64,000 nt of DNA from a bacterium (GCA_036504735.1 DASXUQ010000002.1:248001-312000), one strand, 5' to 3'. Positions 14,872 to 62,994 are shown, counted from the stretch's first letter. Program-made: numbers and translations. The notes: a model not told the origin generated them from the letters alone.

Positions 14872-16284
14872 TTACTTCAGCAACAGGAGCTTTCCTGTCT
14901 GCACGCGCTCGCCCGCAGTCAAGCGTGCAAGGTAGATCCCGCCGGCAAGACCCCTCGCATCGAAAGCCACCGCGTAGCTGCCGCGTACGAGATGCTCATT
15001 GACCAGCACCGCCACTTCCTGCCCCAGTACATTGTACACGGCAAGCCGTGCGTGGCCGGCTGTTGACAGCACAAAGGGAACCGTCGTCGTCGGGTTGAAA
15101 GGATTCGGATAACACGGGCCAAGCGCAAAGACCCCGGGCACGGTGCTGATCAACCGCGCTGAAATCGAGGCCGGATGGGCAACATGAATATTCGTGGCAA
15201 AGGCCGACGCCCACTGCAACGAAGAATCCACGTGGCACTTCAAGCAGGCCACGTCGAGGGGAATCGCGCCGTGCCCTTCATCGTCCAGCCGCACAAACAT
15301 GGTCCCGCCGATGTTCACAAAGCTGGATTCCCGCGGCTGCGCTGTCACATTAATCGAGAAGAAGTGATCGCGCACGTCCGCCTGATACGGATTGAACGTC
15401 TGCCCCGAACGGTCCCACTCCGCCATGTGGCAGTCCTGGCATTCGAAGGTATCGTGAAACTGCACCTGATAGTTGGAGGTGTGGCAGTTGCTGCAGGTTG
15501 CCCCCGGCGTCACACCGCCCTGGTCATACACTACACTCTTGTGCGGGTTGTGGCACTGCGTACAGTCCAAAAAGGACATCGGCGAGTGCGACAACTCGTC
15601 ATACTGCTGATTGTTCGCCAGCCATCCCGCGCCGTCCTGCCGCGGACGGTGCAAGGAATCGCCGCGCGTGTGGCATCTTTGACAGGCCGTCAACGGCGCG
15701 CGGTCCAGGGAATCGGGATTCTGCGTGGCCACGTGCGCGCTGCCGGGACCATGACAGGCTTCACAGCCGATTCCCGGCTCCGCCCAGTTGCCCCACACTC
15801 CGGGCCGGTTCTGCCAGTGATGCGCCACGTCGGCCGAATCCGCCGCCACCGCGCCCGTGGTATGACAGTTCATGCAGAAGAACTGATAGGGACGGCGGGT
15901 CGTCGTCAAGGAATCGACATACACCATCTGCATCGTGCGGATATTCCACTGCGCCGGCTGATTGCCGATGGAGCCGGAGGAGATTTCGTAGCCCGCCGAA
16001 TCGAAGAACAGGGCCTTGTTCCAAAAGCCGCCGAGCACAAAGGACAACTGATTCCATGGGATGGCGTCCGGCGGATTGGCCGGCAAGTGCATCACCTCGG
16101 GAAACGGGTAGGTCGGCGGTGCGCCGCCCGTCACCGGATTTACCATATGCGCATGTCCGTGATTCACCCAATCCGCATGAACCGTGGAATGGCATGTATT
16201 GCAGGTCTGGGAGCCGACATACGTCCGCCCCACCGCCAGCAGGCTGACGGCCAACACTGATACACAAACCAGAAGCTTCCGCAT
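14872..16284 (-). CDS. Octaheme c-type cytochrome with type IX sorting domain
   Basis: A signal peptide (residues 1-19) precedes eight CxxCH haem-binding motifs: CNTCH, CMNCH, CEACH, CQRCH, CTQCH, CSNCH, CQDCH and CLKCH. Spacing and the CEACHGPG segment resemble cytochrome c554/octahaem-type proteins. The last ~75 residues are a type IX sorting domain (YPNPFNPTTTVPFVL to GKLLLLK), so the cytochrome should cross the outer membrane and be attached at the surface. AAAGGAG lies 10 bases before the ATG. The gene follows the nonahaem lipoprotein cytochrome with a terminator between them. Likely role: electron transfer at or outside the outer membrane; an enzymatic octahaem function is an alternative. 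No CxxCK active-site motif of nitrite reductase is present. Confidence 0.9.
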   Translation of the reverse strand: MRKLLVCVSVLAVSLLAVGRTYVGSQTCNTCHSTVHADWVNHGHAHMVNPVTGGAPPTYPFPEVMHLPANPPDAIPWNQLSFVLGGFWNKALFFDSAGYEISSGSIGNQPAQWNIRTMQMVYVDSLTTTRRPYQFFCMNCHTTGAVAADSADVAHHWQNRPGVWGNWAEPGIGCEACHGPGSAHVATQNPDSLDRAPLTACQRCHTRGDSLHRPRQDGAGWLANNQQYDELSHSPMSFLDCTQCHNPHKSVVYDQGGVTPGATCSNCHTSNYQVQFHDTFECQDCHMAEWDRSGQTFNPYQADVRDHFFSINVTAQPRESSFVNIGGTMFVRLDDEGHGAIPLDVACLKCHVDSSLQWASAFATNIHVAHPASISARLISTVPGVFALGPCYPNPFNPTTTVPFVLSTAGHARLAVYNVLGQEVAVLVNEHLVRGSYAVAFDARGLAGGIYLARLTAGERVQTGKLLLLK

Positions 16285-16601
16285 AGGCCGGCTCCTTTAA
16301 CAATTATGGACCGCCCGCAGACTTTTTTGCACACCACTAATATACGAACGCGCACGCGAGTCGCAAGTAAGTCATCAAAAAATCATGGACATAAGTGACC
16401 CCGCCCTTGTTTATCCATATGCATCTCAGAACTCCGCTATACATTAGGGCAAGAGGACTCCTCGCGGAAGCCTCGAGTTATCCACACGCAAAAAAAGAGC
16501 GGGACTGAAATTTCAGTCTCGCTCTTTCTTGCGCTCGGTTCAGGTCTTCACATCGGGGAATTGGGAATGATCTCTCATCCGCCATCCCACATCCGTCATC
16601 C
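16285..16601. other. Spacer between the two cytochrome genes
   Basis: About 320 bases. It holds the long palindromic terminator at 16494-16527, a short ATCC-rich stretch (16571-16600) resembling the iterated motifs after other leftward genes, and the presumed promoter region of the octaheme gene, in which I find no clear -35/-10 pair. Confidence 0.4.
16494..16527 (-). terminator. Palindromic terminator after the nonaheme cytochrome
   Basis: A 17-bp inverted repeat with no loop bases (AAAGAGCGGGACTGAAA with one G-T pair in the complement). Read leftward it is followed by a run of seven Ts. Confidence 0.85.
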
Positions 16602-18221
16602 TTAGTTGGGATTGCTCTGCAGCGAGGCAACCGCATTGCGCAGAATCGAAAGCGCGTAGCTGCGATTGTGGACACCCTTGCTGCCGTCGGCGTTCACGAA
16701 GAAGTACGTGTAGCCTGCGGCACGCTGCGGGGCGCTCCAGTTGACCGTATCCATCGCCGCCATCACGTTGCCACTGCCGTCATGCGGCAGCAACGCCTTC
16801 AGCGAATCCATCAGCACCGTGACTTCCGTCTGCGTGCCGCCGATGTCAAAGTCGGTGGCTCCCGGATGGCACGTCTGGCACTTGCGGATATCCGGCGCGA
16901 AGCGGTGACCGAAGTTCGGTCCGCCCGGCTGGCCACGCGCGATGGTGTACATGTGGCAATCAACGCACATGTCCGGCAGCATCGAGGTAGTGTGCTGGTT
17001 GGTGCGCTCCACGGTGCCCGTTAGTTCCCAGTCGCCATAGCCATTGATCATGTCGCCTTGCGGGCTCTCGTGCGGGCCTGGGTGGGCGCTGCCGGAGGCA
17101 ATCTGTCCCTGAATGTTCGCCTGATTACGGCGGGCATGGTGGCACTGTGCGCAAAGCTGGCCCTTGCCCATACCGGTGATGGTGCGGCCGGCGGGATTGT
17201 CTTCGCCGCCGTACGCCTGCGTCACGTCCGCCACGCTGCGAAGCTGCGCGTCGTTGGTCTTATTGTGCGGATCGTGGCAGGTGGTGCAGTTGATCTGATT
17301 CGCCATCGCCAGATTCGCCGTCGTCCAGTCCGCGTCCTTGCTCTTGATAAAGCCTTCCGACACGTGGCAGGGATTGCAGGAAGCGCCACCCCATTCGGTC
17401 AGGAAGGGACCGACGCCGCCTGAGCGGGCGATCACTGTGCCGTGACCTGAAGAGTCAATTTCGGTCTGCTGAGTATGGCACTGGCTGCACTTCTCACCGC
17501 TGATCACGTTCGTGAGCTGCGGAGAATGGCCGGCCGGATCCGGACCCATCGCACCGTGGCAGGACTCGCACTGCACGCCCTGAAGTTCGGCGCGCGGATT
17601 GTCGTCATAACCACCGCTGTTCTGGCCATGCGTGGTCAGGTTGCCGTTGTGGTCATACTTGTCGTCGAAACCCGTCGTGTGGCACTGCAGACAGTAAGGA
17701 TTGGTGTTCGACGTGCCCAGCGAGTCATACGCGCCGGCATGGGGAGTCGCTGCCCACTGCGCTGCCGTTGCCGAGTGGCAATGGCCGCAGGAGGTGGCAT
17801 TGCTGCCCAGATAGTTGGGGAACACGGTCGGGCGCGAGGTGCTCACACCCACCGCCGTGCTGTCGCGCACCGTCTGGCCGCCCGCCGTCACCGCCACGCG
17901 CAGCAGAACAACGCCGCGGTCCGCCGGAGCCGTCCACATCGTGGCCGCCGCATTCGGGTTGCTGAAGGTTCCAGCCGTGGCCGTCCACTCATAGGCGAGG
18001 CTGTCGCCGTTCGGGTCATACGCCGAGACCAGTACCTGGCTCGTCACGCCAGGACCCACAGAGTCAGGCATGGCAACCACCGCCGTAATCCGCGGGGCCA
18101 TGGAAGCATTCGCGCCAGCCGGACCCGCCGGGCCCTGGTCGCCTTTACAGCCGGCGAAGATCGCCGCAGTCAACAGGATCGCTGCGAGCAGGATCTGCAG
18201 CATGATTTTTGATTGTTTCAT
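16602..18221 (-). CDS. Nonaheme c-type cytochrome lipoprotein with collagen-like linker
   Basis: The N-terminus is a lipoprotein signal (…AIFAGCKGD, Cys25) followed directly by a short collagen-like GDQGPAGPAG stretch. Residues ~45-125 form an Ig/PKD-like beta domain (VSAYDPNGDSLAYEWTAT). Nine CxxCH motifs follow: CGHCH, CLQCH, CESCH, CSQCH, CNPCH, CTTCH, CAQCH, CVDCH and CQTCH. The C-terminus has a small helical domain and no type IX tail. This architecture suits an outer-membrane-anchored multihaem electron carrier. GAGGT precedes the ATG at short distance. The octaheme cytochrome gene lies just downstream on the same strand but after a terminator, so co-regulation is plausible but not shown. 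Confidence 0.9.
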   Translation of the reverse strand: MKQSKIMLQILLAAILLTAAIFAGCKGDQGPAGPAGANASMAPRITAVVAMPDSVGPGVTSQVLVSAYDPNGDSLAYEWTATAGTFSNPNAAATMWTAPADRGVVLLRVAVTAGGQTVRDSTAVGVSTSRPTVFPNYLGSNATSCGHCHSATAAQWAATPHAGAYDSLGTSNTNPYCLQCHTTGFDDKYDHNGNLTTHGQNSGGYDDNPRAELQGVQCESCHGAMGPDPAGHSPQLTNVISGEKCSQCHTQQTEIDSSGHGTVIARSGGVGPFLTEWGGASCNPCHVSEGFIKSKDADWTTANLAMANQINCTTCHDPHNKTNDAQLRSVADVTQAYGGEDNPAGRTITGMGKGQLCAQCHHARRNQANIQGQIASGSAHPGPHESPQGDMINGYGDWELTGTVERTNQHTTSMLPDMCVDCHMYTIARGQPGGPNFGHRFAPDIRKCQTCHPGATDFDIGGTQTEVTVLMDSLKALLPHDGSGNVMAAMDTVNWSAPQRAAGYTYFFVNADGSKGVHNRSYALSILRNAVASLQSNPN

Positions 18222-19559: not shown

Positions 19560-21182
19560 TTACTTCAACAGCACAATCTTGGCGCTGACCAATGGCCGGT
19601 TCCAGATCGTATCCGTTGCCCGCACAAAATAGACTCCCGAAGCCAGCGCGCGGCCATCCACGGTGATCTCCTTCTGATCGGCCACTAATCCCGCCCACAG
19701 TTCTTTGACCCGCCGGCCCAGCAGATCAAACAGTTCCACCCGCACGATTTCCGCCTGCGGCACCTCAAGCTGAAGAACCGTGGTGCTATTGAAGGGATTG
19801 GGATAGGCAGACAGACGAAAAGCGGAAGGCGGAGCCGCAGCACGAAGCGTGATTGCACTGGGCTCTTCGCACATCACCGTGTCTTCACACCACGGAGCAA
19901 ACTTGACAAAGCCCGTGATGGTGTCACCAAGACCCTGTGGATTGGCCGCCGCATGATAGGGCCCGGTGGAATCGCCCCACCAGTTCCAGCGGGCATCCAG
20001 CGTATCCGTGCTGCGGTCTATCTGCACCGCGTAGCCCGTACTGTCAAACCGGTTGCCATGCAACGCGTAATCATCAAGGGATTCCCCCGCTATGACCGGT
20101 GCCAAGGTGACGGTTGCGTTGCGCTCGCGGTCGAGATGTCGGAATCGGTTTCCTCGGACAGCGCAATCCTCCCGAAGATACAAGCCAACGAAGCCGCCCG
20201 ATGCAGGGGCAAAGTTGTTTTCGAACACATTATCTTCGATCACTGCTCGGCACCTTCCATTGCCACCGTTATCGTTGACGAGGTACACTCCGAACGTGCC
20301 CTGCGCGTTCACGATGTTGTTCACCACGCGATTATTGCGGAGGGTGACGACAGACGTATCGTCGCAGGCACAATCGAGAGTAATGACTTCGTGTCCCAGA
20401 TACAGACCTTCGAATACATTATTTTGTACAAGTCCGGAGGTCACCCCCAACCACAGCGCGGGATCGAACGACTGCTCGTTGGCTTCGGACGGACCAAAAA
20501 TACAGTCCTCAATGCGGATGCCGCGCCCTGTGACCATGCACAGCGAGCCGTCGCGGTTGCCGAGAAAACGGCAGCGCAAAAAGGTACTGCTGTCCCCGAC
20601 ATGGATATTGAACAAAGCGCGACCGTGGAATACGCAATCCGTGGCGTGTAAGGCAAAGTGGCTCTCCGTGCTGTAGACGCACGCGCCCTGAATCGTACGA
20701 AACTCACACCGCTCCATGCTGATGGACCGCCATCCTGCCACGTAACCGCCCGCCGTGGAATCAAGGATGCAACGACGCAGCATGACGCCCGGACATCCCC
20801 CCGAAATTCCGCCGTTGGATCCCGGATCGTGCGGATACATGGCGGCGCCATTGTGAAAGCTCAGGTCCTCGACCGTAATGCTCAACGGAGTGGTAAGCGT
20901 CGGAAGAGTCAGGCAAGTGCGTCCGCGAGGATTCGTGAGTGATGTGGGATCTATCACCGGACGCGGATAATCGCCCGTATCGGGAATGGCGTCGCCCTTC
21001 AGAACGAAACTACGCCCCGGACATTGAAGTGCCTCTGCGTACGTCCCCAGCGCCACAAGCACCGTGTCGCCATTCTGAACCGCATTCAGCGCACTCTGAA
21101 TCGTTGCATAGTCAGCGGGCACGTGCCGTGTCACGGCCCACGCCGTGCCCGCCAGCAACAACACCGCAAGCATGCGTATCAT
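19560..21182 (-). CDS. Secreted right-handed beta-helix protein with type IX sorting domain
   Basis: A signal peptide (MIRMLAVLLLAGTAWA) is followed by the typical start of parallel beta-helix proteins (HVPADYATIQSALNAVQNGDTVLVALGTY). Many short rungs follow (CILDSTAGGY, NNVFEGLYLG, LRNNRVVNNIV), resembling pectate-lyase-like and NosD-type folds. A WNWWGDSTGPYHAAANPQG segment precedes the C-terminal type IX domain (YPNPFNSTTVLQLEV to KIVLLK). I chose the ATG at 21182 because GGGGA lies seven bases upstream; in-frame starts further upstream lack this. The preceding Cys-rich gene ends 13 bases before it, so they form an operon. Probably a surface protein, possibly polysaccharide-binding. Confidence 0.85.
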   Translation of the reverse strand: MIRMLAVLLLAGTAWAVTRHVPADYATIQSALNAVQNGDTVLVALGTYAEALQCPGRSFVLKGDAIPDTGDYPRPVIDPTSLTNPRGRTCLTLPTLTTPLSITVEDLSFHNGAAMYPHDPGSNGGISGGCPGVMLRRCILDSTAGGYVAGWRSISMERCEFRTIQGACVYSTESHFALHATDCVFHGRALFNIHVGDSSTFLRCRFLGNRDGSLCMVTGRGIRIEDCIFGPSEANEQSFDPALWLGVTSGLVQNNVFEGLYLGHEVITLDCACDDTSVVTLRNNRVVNNIVNAQGTFGVYLVNDNGGNGRCRAVIEDNVFENNFAPASGGFVGLYLREDCAVRGNRFRHLDRERNATVTLAPVIAGESLDDYALHGNRFDSTGYAVQIDRSTDTLDARWNWWGDSTGPYHAAANPQGLGDTITGFVKFAPWCEDTVMCEEPSAITLRAAAPPSAFRLSAYPNPFNSTTVLQLEVPQAEIVRVELFDLLGRRVKELWAGLVADQKEITVDGRALASGVYFVRATDTIWNRPLVSAKIVLLK

Positions 21183-21195
21183 GGACATTCCCCGG

Positions 21196-21675
21196 TTAAT
21201 CCGTAAGTTTCGCCCGTGCGGTGCACGTGGTCGGACAATCGTCACAGGTAACTCCCGGACAGTGCCGCTTACACACCACCAAACGATAGAGATTGCCTGG
21301 TTGTAGTTGGAGGCATGTTTCCGTATGCGAACACTGGTTTTCCTGGCAACTGATATGTGATGGACCACATCGCACGTCGAGGCTGCCGTCCTTGACGACA
21401 TAGGCGCAGACCTGACAGTATTTGCAGTAGGCAGGATCTGAGCACTGCATTTCTGCCGTCAGATAGTACGTTCCCTCCACGGGCACGACGAATGCGGCTG
21501 ACAGTCCGCAATTCGCATCCGGAGAATTGCACTCCTGCACATCGCTGCAAGTGGCGTCAGTCACCTCGACTACAAATTGGGCGGGGAGATTCGGAGAACC
21601 CTGCCCCACCCCCACCGTAACCGAACCCAGCAAGACAAGGATGCCCATGACCATGATACTCAGAATCGTCTTCAT
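21196..21675 (-). CDS. Cys-rich secreted protein, unrecognised
   Basis: A signal peptide (MKTILSIMVMGILVLLGSVTVGVG) precedes a mature region of about 135 residues with 18 cysteines, in patterns such as CSDVQEC, CKYCQVC, HCPGVTCDDCPTTC. Several disulfides or a metal site are likely after export. I know no family with this spacing. GGAGG is eight bases before the ATG at 21675. It is followed 13 bases later by the beta-helix T9SS protein, so the two are probably co-exported and may interact. Confidence 0.75.
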   Translation of the reverse strand: MKTILSIMVMGILVLLGSVTVGVGQGSPNLPAQFVVEVTDATCSDVQECNSPDANCGLSAAFVVPVEGTYYLTAEMQCSDPAYCKYCQVCAYVVKDGSLDVRCGPSHISCQENQCSHTETCLQLQPGNLYRLVVCKRHCPGVTCDDCPTTCTARAKLTD

Positions 21676-60420: not shown

Positions 60421-60606
60421 CGGTTCAGCCAACGCGGAAACGGATATATATGTCCATTTTGCAAAATTGCTCAAATCCCTTGCGGATGGATGTGAATTTG
60501 CTTATTATTTAGCCGACCTCCTTTCGCTGATGTCTTTTTGCAGAGGATTCCCGAACGGAACCCTTTGCAAAGTGACACTCTTAGCAGCTCCAGAAAGGAT
60601 GGCACG

Positions 60607-62994
60607 ATGATTCCCTCCCCTCACTCTTTCCACCCTGCGGCTCCCCTCCCTGCCGCGTGTTTTCTGCTGACACCTTTCCAGACCATTCTAACTGCTTTTC
60701 GGGCTTGTGGTTACAAGTCGAGGCGGCTTATTGCCGTTTTGGCCTTGCTTGTGACTGCGAGCCCGCTTTTTGCCGCGTGGAATGCGTTGCCGGCCGGTCA
60801 GCCCGAAGTCGTCTCTCTGGCAGCCAGTGCGGACGGCCAGCGGCTATGGGTAAGTTTGCGCGATGCAGGGATCTGGAGGAGCAGCAACGGCGGAGAAACC
60901 TGGATTGAGGCAGACAGTTGCTTCGGAGAGTCCGATCAGGCCGGAACGGCCAATTTTGCGGCGGTAGATCCTGCCGGCGACACCCTCGTAGCCAATCTTC
61001 AGCGCGGACAAACGCGGGTACTGTACTCGACGTTCGACGGTGGGATCACGTGGCATGCCAGCACAAATACTCTGCTGCAAAATCTCCTCGGAGATATTCT
61101 GGTCATGCGGAGCCACCCGAACTTGTGGATCGCCTTAACCGACTTCTATGTGTGCCGCACCACAAACTACGGCCAGACATGGAGTGCCCCTACGGAAAAT
61201 CATCTGCCTCAGTGGTTGAGCGAAGACCCTCAGGTAGACGGCGGACTGTTTCTTATGAGTCGCTCCAGCTATCCGCACAGGTTGACGCGCAGCACCGACT
61301 ATGGGGCAACGTGGACAAGCAGTGTGCTGGGGACAGGAAGTTATGGATATCCCGGAGCGGCTGAACGCTTGAGCAACGGCGAAATCCTTATCCCGTTTTG
61401 CGATGGCATATCGTATTCGCTGGTGCGATCAACCGACAATGGCCAGTCGTGGAACCGTACGGTTCCCCTTTCCATCTACACGGATCCTTGGGAGACCAGT
61501 CTGTATTGTCTGGAAGACCGGGCCCATCCGGGACGGCTGTTTTTGACGACCGCGATGACGGGAGGACTCCGGCAATCTGAGGATTTCGGCCAGACATGGT
61601 GGCCAGCCGTCAATGGGACGCCACTGCACTTGACCCGTGCCCGGTGGTTGCAAGAGAATCCCTTCACGCGCATCATCTACGCCGACTTTGCCGACTACGG
61701 CTTGTTTGCCTATACCGCTCAAATTGAAACGTGGCAGCCCATCCCGCTGCCGCCGGTCGGAACACGCGCCGCGGTGCGGTTTGTGGGGGATGCCGTATTC
61801 TGCCAAAGCGACGGCGAGGTCGCTTTGCGCGAATGGGAAAGCGCGGATCCGTCTGCCGGCTGGCACGAAATCTCCATGCTGCCCAGTCGCGGAGACACGG
61901 TCGTCGAACGGAGTCCCGTGCTCTGCAAGAGCGGCGACACCCTGACGGCGATCATCGTGAAGACTCCCTCCAGCAACAGAACGTTGCATCTCTCCTATTT
62001 TACGCAAAGCACGGATGATGGCGAGAGCTGGCAATATGGGCCGCAACTTGACGTGAATCCGGACCCCACATGCATCCGGCCACTCACCACGCCGACAGGA
62101 TTGAAGCTGTTAGCGGCGCCGAATCATGCCATAGGTAACGCTCGACAGGACGTCTTTTTTTCCGCAGACACGGGCAGATCGTGGCGCACAACGACACGGC
62201 TCCCGAATAGCGGACTGATAGATGCCCTCTGGCTGGATTCCGCAATCTGGGTGATGGAAGGCTATGATGGGGAAGCGGTTCGCATCACCCGCACCACGAA
62301 CGAGGGCATCACGTGGAATTCTTTTTCCTTTCCCGCGCTTGCGAGTAACGTCGTCAGTCTGGCCGGACAGATGTTCTGCTTGACGCAAGGTTACTGCGCG
62401 CATTGGACCGGCCAGAACTGGAGTATCGTCTCCACGCTGCCTTTCTCGGCTCAGTTCAACGTCCGGTGGAGCCTGATCGGCATCTCCCTGCCCGACCCCC
62501 TGCTGTTTGCTGCCTGTGAAAACTCGAGTTCCTTATGGATGTCGGAGAATCTCGGCACCACTTGGCAAGCGCGGGATTACGAATTGCCCTGGCCGGGCCA
62601 AAACCATATGCTGTTCAACCTCCGCTATGATGCCGTGCATCAGCGGCTCTGGGCCAGCAGCGGCGTGGGTCTGTGCTATCTGGATCGGTCCGATTTTCTT
62701 TCCACCGGCAAGCCGTTAGTCTTCAAGCCTTCCGATTACGCGGTGTTGTCGGCATATCCCAATCCTTTCAACGGCAGTACGCGCATCCGCTTTGATCTTC
62801 TGACACGGCAGAAGGTGAAGCTGGATCTGTATGATCTGCAGGGACGGCATGTGCAAACCCTCTGCGATGAGATCCGGGACGCTGGACGTAATGAGATTGC
62901 CGTGAAAGGCGAGGGGCTGGCTTCGGGGACCTATTTTGTGAGATTGAACTCAGCGGAAACACAACGCACGGAAAAAATTCTGCTGTTAAAGTAA
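60607..62994 (+). CDS. Secreted Asp-box (BNR/sialidase-like) propeller protein with type IX sorting domain
   Basis: About 795 residues from the ATG at 60607 (AAAGGA seven bases upstream). The signal region is long (hydrophobic LIAVLALLVTASPLFA at about residues 39-54, after a basic stretch). Repeated Asp-boxes of the form S-x-D-x-G-x-T-W occur: SNGGETW, STFDGGITW, STDYGATW, STDNGQSW, SEDFGQTW, STDDGESW, SADTGRSW, SENLGTTW. They indicate a multi-bladed propeller as in VPS10/sialidase-like proteins. The type IX domain is YPNPFNGSTRIRFDL to EKILLLK. The catalytic Arg triad of true sialidases is not evident. The paralogue follows 21 bases downstream. Confidence 0.87.
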   Translation: MIPSPHSFHPAAPLPAACFLLTPFQTILTAFRACGYKSRRLIAVLALLVTASPLFAAWNALPAGQPEVVSLAASADGQRLWVSLRDAGIWRSSNGGETWIEADSCFGESDQAGTANFAAVDPAGDTLVANLQRGQTRVLYSTFDGGITWHASTNTLLQNLLGDILVMRSHPNLWIALTDFYVCRTTNYGQTWSAPTENHLPQWLSEDPQVDGGLFLMSRSSYPHRLTRSTDYGATWTSSVLGTGSYGYPGAAERLSNGEILIPFCDGISYSLVRSTDNGQSWNRTVPLSIYTDPWETSLYCLEDRAHPGRLFLTTAMTGGLRQSEDFGQTWWPAVNGTPLHLTRARWLQENPFTRIIYADFADYGLFAYTAQIETWQPIPLPPVGTRAAVRFVGDAVFCQSDGEVALREWESADPSAGWHEISMLPSRGDTVVERSPVLCKSGDTLTAIIVKTPSSNRTLHLSYFTQSTDDGESWQYGPQLDVNPDPTCIRPLTTPTGLKLLAAPNHAIGNARQDVFFSADTGRSWRTTTRLPNSGLIDALWLDSAIWVMEGYDGEAVRITRTTNEGITWNSFSFPALASNVVSLAGQMFCLTQGYCAHWTGQNWSIVSTLPFSAQFNVRWSLIGISLPDPLLFAACENSSSLWMSENLGTTWQARDYELPWPGQNHMLFNLRYDAVHQRLWASSGVGLCYLDRSDFLSTGKPLVFKPSDYAVLSAYPNPFNGSTRIRFDLLTRQKVKLDLYDLQGRHVQTLCDEIRDAGRNEIAVKGEGLASGTYFVRLNSAETQRTEKILLLK

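What the first reader, a model, noticed from the sequence alone, without database searches (positions are those of the whole stretch)
14872..18221. Octaheme cytochrome carrying a type IX sorting domain, beside a nonaheme collagen-like lipoprotein cytochrome
Eight CxxCH motifs fused to a NPFNP-type C-terminal sorting domain imply that a multiheme cytochrome is secreted through type IX secretion and fixed at the cell surface. The neighbouring nine-heme protein is a lipoprotein with a GDQGPAGPAG linker and an Ig-like domain. Together they could form an electron path across the outer membrane that uses the type IX route instead of the porin-cytochrome conduits known from Shewanella and Geobacter. 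Seventeen hemes are predicted in about 3.3 kb.
Basis: partly seen in the sequence, partly recalled or inferred. Interest (0 to 1): 0.65.

Follow-up and report, generated by a model that had tools for sequence, protein, structure and literature searches.

The report
Secreted surface multiheme cytochromes, type IX
Two neighbouring genes encode eight-heme and nine-heme electron-carrying proteins that most likely sit on the outside of the cell; the first carries a shipping label for the type IX secretion machine, which suggests that a large group of uncultured bacteria uses this machine to mount the last electron carrier of mineral or extracellular respiration.

Summary
P0001 (14872-16284, -) has eight CxxCH motifs and a C-terminal domain above the TIGR04183 (type IX sorting) cut-off. 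P0002 (16602-18221, -) has nine CxxCH, a lipobox and a collagen-like linker. The genome encodes PorU, SprA and at least 150 type IX tails. The heme part of P0001 is nearest, among solved structures, to OcwA (cell-surface terminal reductase of Thermincola) and MccA; P0002 also matches OcwA. The same octaheme domain occurs in many phyla on different anchors: lipoprotein, archaeal PGF-CTERM-like helix, or type IX tail. These swaps support a surface location.

Type IX is an export route, not an electron route, and nothing shows it replaces a porin-cytochrome conduit. The own genome has a Pcc-like cluster that itself holds a second type IX-tailed cytochrome, and in two other genomes the type IX octaheme gene lies in or beside such a cluster.

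Verdict: an OcwA-related surface terminal cytochrome exported by type IX, probably fed by a Pcc-like conduit. A new variant of a known kind; no paper linking type IX with multiheme cytochromes was found in the library searched.

The parts
14872..16284 (-). P0001: octaheme c-type cytochrome with type IX sorting tail (470 aa)
   Evidence: 8 CxxCH; PF14522 44.6 bits, TIGR04183 32 bits; AlphaFold model pLDDT 81.9
16225..16284 (-). N-terminal Sec-type signal peptide of P0001 (residues 1-20, no lipobox)
   Evidence: sequence MRKLLVCVSVLAVSLLAVG; predicted helix 2-15
15181..16224 (-). Octaheme domain of P0001 (residues 21-368), OcwA/MccA/c554-like
   Evidence: phmmer to OcwA 6i5b E=1e-11, to OmhA 6qvm E=2e-6; profile to OcwA 6e-34, MccA 1e-19; Foldseek to MccA 4rkm E=1e-9
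15118..15180 (-). Flexible linker (residues 369-389)
   Evidence: pLDDT below 50 only here
14875..15117 (-). Type IX C-terminal sorting domain (residues 390-470; YPNPFNPTTT...GGIYLARL...KLLLLK)
   Evidence: TIGR04183 and PF18962 above cut-offs; all-beta domain at pLDDT about 90; Foldseek includes the mirolase C-terminal domain 8qb1
16602..18221 (-). P0002: nonaheme c-type cytochrome lipoprotein with collagen-like linker (539 aa)
   Evidence: 9 CxxCH, lipobox, GDQGPAGPAG; family in 22 of 39 phylum genomes
18147..18221 (-). Lipoprotein signal peptide and lipobox Cys (residues 1-25) of P0002
   Evidence: FAGC25; the G-C pair is nearly invariant in the family alignment
18111..18143 (-). Collagen-like linker GDQGPAGPAGA (residues 27-37)
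   Evidence: sequence; GPxGPxG linkers of varying length after the lipobox in most relatives
17838..18098 (-). Ig/PKD-like domain (about residues 42-128)
   Evidence: weak matches only: PF22352 E=0.003, PF17963 E=0.48
16605..17816 (-). Nonaheme domain of P0002 (residues 136-539)
   Evidence: family profile to OcwA 6i5b E=2e-20, NrfA 4e-16, c554 5e-10
16503..16518 (-). Terminator-like hairpin downstream of P0002, upstream of P0001
   Evidence: GACTGAAATTTCAGTC then CCGCTCTTTT; about as many such sites are expected by chance

Best explanation
P0001 is a periplasmically matured, OcwA-related octaheme cytochrome that the type IX machine exports and fixes at (or releases from) the outer face of the outer membrane. 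There it acts as a terminal electron-transfer protein for an extracellular or poorly permeant acceptor. P0002 is a second, OcwA-type nonaheme cytochrome, held on the outer membrane (probably its outer leaflet) by a lipid and a collagen-like stalk, and passes electrons to or alongside P0001. Electrons most likely cross the outer membrane through a separate porin-cytochrome (Pcc-like) conduit encoded elsewhere in the same genome (contig C9), not through the type IX pore. Proposed order: quinol -> NrfD/FeS and NapC-like 17-heme proteins -> periplasmic multihemes -> barrel plus 12-heme conduit -> surface lipoprotein and type IX cytochromes -> acceptor. Shown: heme motifs, tail, lipobox, type IX genes, presence of the C9 cluster, gene neighbourhoods, homology. 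Inferred: surface exposure, electron flow, the acceptor, the conduit's identity.
For: Tail above two curated cut-offs; PorU, SprA and at least 150 tails in the genome. Nearest solved structures OcwA, OmhA, MccA, c554; OcwA is a cell-surface reductase of iron oxides and electrodes (PMC6703420) and OmhA is found at the cell-mineral interface (PMC7829351). The same octaheme domain in other genomes is a lipoprotein (Chloroflexota with the same kind of collagen-like linker, Planctomycetota, Gemmatimonadota), ends in an archaeal PGF-CTERM-like helix (Methanoperedens), or has a type IX tail (Calditrichota, Bacteroidota, Krumholzibacteriota, this phylum). A P0002-like domain in G002 has a type IX tail (48.7 bits) instead of a lipobox. 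P0001-like and P0002-like genes are neighbours, or within about 9 kb, in G000, G031, G016 and in Bacteroidota, Gemmatimonadota and Planctomycetota records. Own C9 cluster: 418-aa barrel-like protein, 12-heme, 12-heme lipoprotein, CcsA, ResB, tetraheme, second type IX-tailed nonaheme (34 bits), FeS/NrfD, 13-, 16-, 17-, 17-heme. In G016 (= L097) one cluster holds 17-heme, type IX octaheme, P0002-like, barrel and 11-heme genes; L152 has type IX octaheme, barrel-like, 14-heme, 8-heme lipoprotein on one strand. P0002 and the barrel family co-occur: 21 of 22 against 4 of 17 genomes, Fisher p=3.5e-6, relatedness not corrected.
Against: No expression, proteomic or physiological data. P0001 is patchy: only 9 of 39 phylum genomes, and its co-occurrence with the barrel (7 of 9) is not significant. 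In the window's genome the pair is far from the conduit cluster and flanked by trehalose genes. The barrel assignment rests on signal peptide, amphipathic-strand enrichment (z 1.5-3.5; comparison proteins from other families near 0) and gene context: the AlphaFold model failed (pLDDT 29) and the profile finds no solved porin. Lipoproteins can also face the periplasm. An OcwA/MccA-like fold also fits a soluble-substrate reductase.
Confidence: 0.68

Rival explanations
1. P0001 is a surface or periplasmic enzyme for a soluble substrate (sulfite, nitrite, hydroxylamine, a sulfur or metalloid oxyanion), like MccA, c554 or octaheme nitrite reductases, not a terminal reductase for solids or electrodes.
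For: Only strong Foldseek match of the heme part is MccA over 465 columns; profile matches to MccA, c554, a Shewanella octaheme cytochrome (1sp3), octaheme nitrite reductase. OcwA itself reduces nitrite and hydroxylamine (PMC6703420).
Against: Type IX export and partnering with surface-type lipoprotein cytochromes make little sense for a freely diffusing substrate; best sequence match is OcwA; clusters hold conduit-like genes.
Confidence: 0.2
2. One reading: the two cytochromes themselves make an outer-membrane electron path based on type IX that replaces porin-cytochrome conduits.
For: Pair conserved across phyla; G010 and G013 have the type IX cytochrome but no detected barrel or P0002 relative.
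Against: No transmembrane part in either protein; own genome has a Pcc-like cluster; G016 and L152 have the type IX cytochrome in or beside a Pcc-like cluster.
Confidence: 0.05
3. The C-terminal domain is an ordinary FlgD-like Ig domain of a periplasmic protein.
For: Modest score (32 bits); Ig-like folds dominate the Foldseek list; FlgD models match some relatives weakly.
Against: Above TIGR04183 and PF18962 cut-offs; nine of ten tailed relatives score 34-49 bits and one 23.3; at least 150 such tails plus PorU and SprA in the genome; Foldseek includes a solved type IX C-terminal domain (8qb1).
Confidence: 0.07

Closest known systems
OcwA of Thermincola potens (PDB 6i5b) and OmhA of Carboxydothermus ferrireducens (6qvm)
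   Same: Nearest solved sequences to P0001 (profile E 6e-34 and 6e-24) and OcwA nearest to P0002 (2e-20); surface multiheme terminal reductases, OcwA being unrelated to MtrC (PMC6703420)
   Different: OcwA and OmhA come from single-membrane bacteria and are not known to carry a type IX tail; P0001 has 8 hemes, matches OcwA significantly only over its N-terminal part, and has an added type IX tail
MccA octaheme sulfite reductase (4rkm)
   Same: Eight hemes; Foldseek E=9.5e-10 over 465 columns
   Different: 16% identity, TM-score 0.44 on the query; MccA is a sulfite reductase with no sorting tail
Geobacter Pcc (OmbB-OmaB-OmcB) and Shewanella MtrCAB
   Same: Own C9 cluster and relatives pair a barrel-like protein with a multi-CxxCH protein (11-14 hemes) and lipoprotein cytochromes; Pcc periplasmic cytochromes have 5-14 hemes (PMC4245776)
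   Different: No sequence match of the barrel to solved porins; the surface cytochrome is type IX-exported, whereas Shewanella surface cytochromes use type II secretion and a lipid anchor (PMC7096707)
Type IX (Por) secretion substrates of Bacteroidota
   Same: TIGR04183 tail, Sec-type signal, PorU and SprA in the genome
   Different: Cargo is a multiheme cytochrome; no paper in the library searched joins type IX with multiheme cytochromes (the three hits have only single mentions)

Membership tests
Type IX secretion substrate (type A) | C-terminal sorting domain above curated cut-off | tested here: met
   TIGR04183 32.0 against 23; PF18962 29.0 against 27
Type IX secretion substrate (type A) | PorU and SprA/Sov in the genome | tested here: met
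   PorU 611.6 bits (cut-off 420); SprA 586.5 + 168 bits in one 2266-aa frame
Type IX secretion substrate (type A) | Export through SprA and tail removal by PorU | not testable with these tools
   needs a culture
OcwA-type multiheme reductase | Sequence and fold similarity including the c554-like part | tested here: met
   Foldseek finds MccA, not OcwA, first
OcwA-type multiheme reductase | Nine hemes as 4 + 5 arrangement | tested here: not met
   P0001 has 8; P0002 has 9 and matches the NrfA-like half, so only P0002 fits
OcwA-type multiheme reductase | Surface location and reduction of iron oxide or electrode | not testable with these tools
   biochemistry needed
Pcc / Mtr porin-cytochrome conduit | Outer-membrane barrel gene beside a periplasmic multiheme gene | tested here: inconclusive
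   true of the C9 cluster and of relatives, not of the window pair itself; barrel fold not confirmed
Pcc / Mtr porin-cytochrome conduit | Homology to MtrB/MtrC or OmbB/OmcB | tested here: inconclusive
   Pfam scans show no MtrB-type family for the barrels; P0002 hits PF22113 (MtrC/MtrF-like) at 38.6 bits; Geobacter proteins were not compared
Bacterial lipoprotein (P0002) | Lipobox with Cys after a signal peptide | tested here: met
   FAGC25, nearly invariant G-C among 10 family members

The most novel reading that the evidence does not exclude
Type IX secretion is a general export-and-anchoring route for the terminal cytochromes of extracellular electron transfer in FCB-type phyla, interchangeable in evolution with lipoprotein and archaeal surface-sorting anchors on the same octaheme head.
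Probability: 0.5. Interest if true: 0.65.

Novelty: new variant of a known kind. Interest (0 to 1): 0.5.

Why it matters
If true, type IX secretion joins type II secretion as a way to put holo-cytochromes on the outside of a diderm cell, and a large set of mostly uncultured lineages (including Calditrichota, Krumholzibacteriota, some Bacteroidota and this candidate phylum) becomes predictable for extracellular respiration by a simple search: CxxCH-rich protein plus type IX tail plus a Pcc-like cluster. It also gives a direct test of whether a folded protein carrying eight covalent hemes can pass the SprA pore.

Tried and rejected
The 'instead of porin-cytochrome' idea was rejected because of the C9 cluster and of the clusters in G016 and L152. 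A link of P0001 to the barrel by co-occurrence alone was tested and is not significant. Structure prediction of the barrel gave an unusable model (pLDDT 29), so it was not used for fold search. A profile of 11 barrels found no solved porin. Paper searches for type IX with multiheme cytochromes returned nothing relevant, but only open-licence full texts are held. The tree of heme domains clusters type IX tails (3 changes at least, one origin not excluded; all four anchor states need at least 7 changes), so many independent gains of the tail are not claimed.

Full report
Observation. P0001 has eight CxxCH motifs, P0002 nine; shuffled versions average 0.04 and 0.03. P0001 ends in a domain that passes the curated cut-offs of TIGR04183 and PF18962. 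P0002 has a lipobox (FAGC25), the linker GDQGPAGPAG and a weakly supported Ig/PKD-like stretch. The genes are 317 bp apart with terminator-like and promoter-like sites between them, so co-transcription is not shown. No other ORF in the window has two or more heme motifs.

Type IX machinery. The genome (4.16 Mb, 98% complete) has PorU at 611.6 bits (cut-off 420), SprA/Sov in a single 2266-aa frame, and at least 150 type IX tails; 150 of 272 candidates were scored and all 150 matched.

What the heme domain is. The octaheme part of P0001 matches OcwA (E 1e-11; family profile 6e-34) and OmhA (2e-6; 6e-24), then MccA, a Shewanella octaheme cytochrome (1sp3) and c554. The AlphaFold model of P0001 (32 sequences, pLDDT 81.9) has a heme domain, a low-confidence linker (369-389) and a well-predicted all-beta tail. 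Foldseek puts MccA first (E 9.5e-10, 465 columns, TM 0.44), followed by Ig-like domains including the solved type IX C-terminal domain of mirolase. P0002's family profile matches OcwA (2e-20), NrfA and c554, and the two families are related to each other (hhalign 99.8%). OcwA was described as a c554-like tetraheme part fused to an NrfA-like pentaheme part, located at the cell surface and able to reduce iron oxides, electrodes, nitrite and hydroxylamine (PMC6703420). P0002's nine hemes fit that plan better than P0001's eight.

Anchors. In the phylum (39 genomes held) P0001 relatives occur in nine genomes, the window's included. Those of G016, G018, G010, G013 and G015 have a type IX tail, that of G004 is a lipoprotein without a tail, and those of G031 and G012 are cut by contig ends. 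P0002 relatives occur in 22 genomes, mostly with lipobox and GPxGPxG linker; in G002 the lipobox is replaced by a type IX tail. A scan of 84,980 species genomes gave 327 relatives of the P0001 heme domain, of which the best 80 loci were kept. Among these, Chloroflexota, Planctomycetota, Gemmatimonadota and others have lipoprotein forms (several Chloroflexota with a collagen-like linker), Methanoperedens archaea end in a PGF-CTERM-like hydrophobic helix, Calditrichota, Bacteroidota and Krumholzibacteriota have type IX tails, and some gammaproteobacteria and Spirochaetota have no evident anchor (type IX scores). Lipobox and PGF-CTERM calls are by pattern and by eye, not by a trained predictor. 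On a tree of 50 heme domains the anchor states are clustered and need at least 7 changes; type IX needs at least 3, though one origin is not excluded by well supported branches. The window protein is a long branch whose place is unsure.

Neighbourhood and conduit. In G016 (also fetched as L097) one cluster holds a 17-heme protein (its homolog in the own genome has a NapC-like N-terminus), the type IX octaheme, the P0002-like lipoprotein, a 422-aa barrel-like protein, an 11-heme and a 7-heme protein. L152 has type IX octaheme, 428-aa barrel-like, 14-heme and 8-heme lipoprotein genes on one strand. L106 (Krumholzibacteriota) has a lipoprotein octaheme beside a 12-heme and a barrel-like gene. P0001-like and P0002-like genes lie near each other also in Bacteroidota (L140, L144), Gemmatimonadota (L118) and Planctomycetota (L121). 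The window's own genome has the corresponding cluster on contig C9: 418-aa barrel-like protein (39-42% identical to those of three relatives), 12-heme, 12-heme lipoprotein, CcsA, ResB, tetraheme, a second type IX-tailed nonaheme cytochrome (TIGR04183 34.1 bits), FeS and NrfD subunits, and 13-, 16-, 17- and 17-heme proteins, the last with a NapC/NirT-like N-terminus. The barrel family co-occurs with P0002 (21/22 against 4/17, p=3.5e-6, phylogeny not corrected), but not significantly with P0001. The barrel assignment is supported by amphipathic-strand enrichment and context, and not confirmed by structure prediction or by profile search of solved structures. Pcc clusters with 18-22-strand porins and periplasmic cytochromes of 5-14 hemes are known, including one in Ignavibacterium album (PMC4245776).

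Mechanism. Heme attachment in the periplasm (CcsA/ResB genes lie in the C9 cluster) would precede export; from general knowledge of type IX, which exports folded proteins through the large SprA pore, a holo-cytochrome is a plausible cargo (inference). Electrons would reach the surface through the Pcc-like conduit.

Novelty. Each component is known: type IX tails, OcwA-type surface cytochromes, porin-cytochrome clusters. The combination appears unreported in the library searched, which holds only open-licence papers. I therefore call it a new variant of a known kind.

Noticed in passing
L038:1429-2814 (+) and L043 (- strand), relatives of P0001 in genomes G015 and G012: Both have an in-frame TGA at the same place (CHGPDS-TGA-[DE]KPDTR) right after the third heme motif; G015 continues in frame to a type IX-like tail, and a hairpin follows the TGA (ACCCGCAUGAUAUGCGGGU; fold z only -1.3). 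selB above cut-off is found in G000, G012, G015 and most of the phylum. Possibly a selenocysteine-containing type IX cytochrome; a multiheme selenoprotein (MccSep, 9wt8) is already in the PDB.
   Followed up: partly
L029:6362-12758 (own genome, contig C12): A 40-heme (1034 aa) and a 20-heme cytochrome beside a 540-aa barrel-like protein and a ferredoxin/FAD oxidoreductase: a second possible outer-membrane conduit.
   Followed up: partly
L027:11738-13513 (own genome, contig C9): A second type IX-tailed multiheme cytochrome (nine hemes) inside the Pcc-like cluster, near CcsA/ResB and NrfD genes; outside its tail it is not a close relative of P0001.
   Followed up: yes
L087:6646-8478 (G018): A five-heme protein with a type IX-like tail (NPFNP) next to two P0002-like genes: another kind of apparently type IX-exported cytochrome.
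   Followed up: no
L140:9932-12622 and L147:4266-8111 (Prolixibacteraceae, Saprospiraceae): 16 and 24 CxxCH motifs, apparently two and three octaheme units in tandem, with one type IX tail.
   Followed up: partly
window 19560-21401 (-) and 60538-62994 (+): Two further type IX-tailed proteins (beta-helix; glycosylhydrolase-like) in the window.
   Followed up: no
L144:1813-2948 (Cyclobacteriaceae): The P0001-like octaheme lipoprotein gene appears split into two frames (98 and 277 aa).
   Followed up: no
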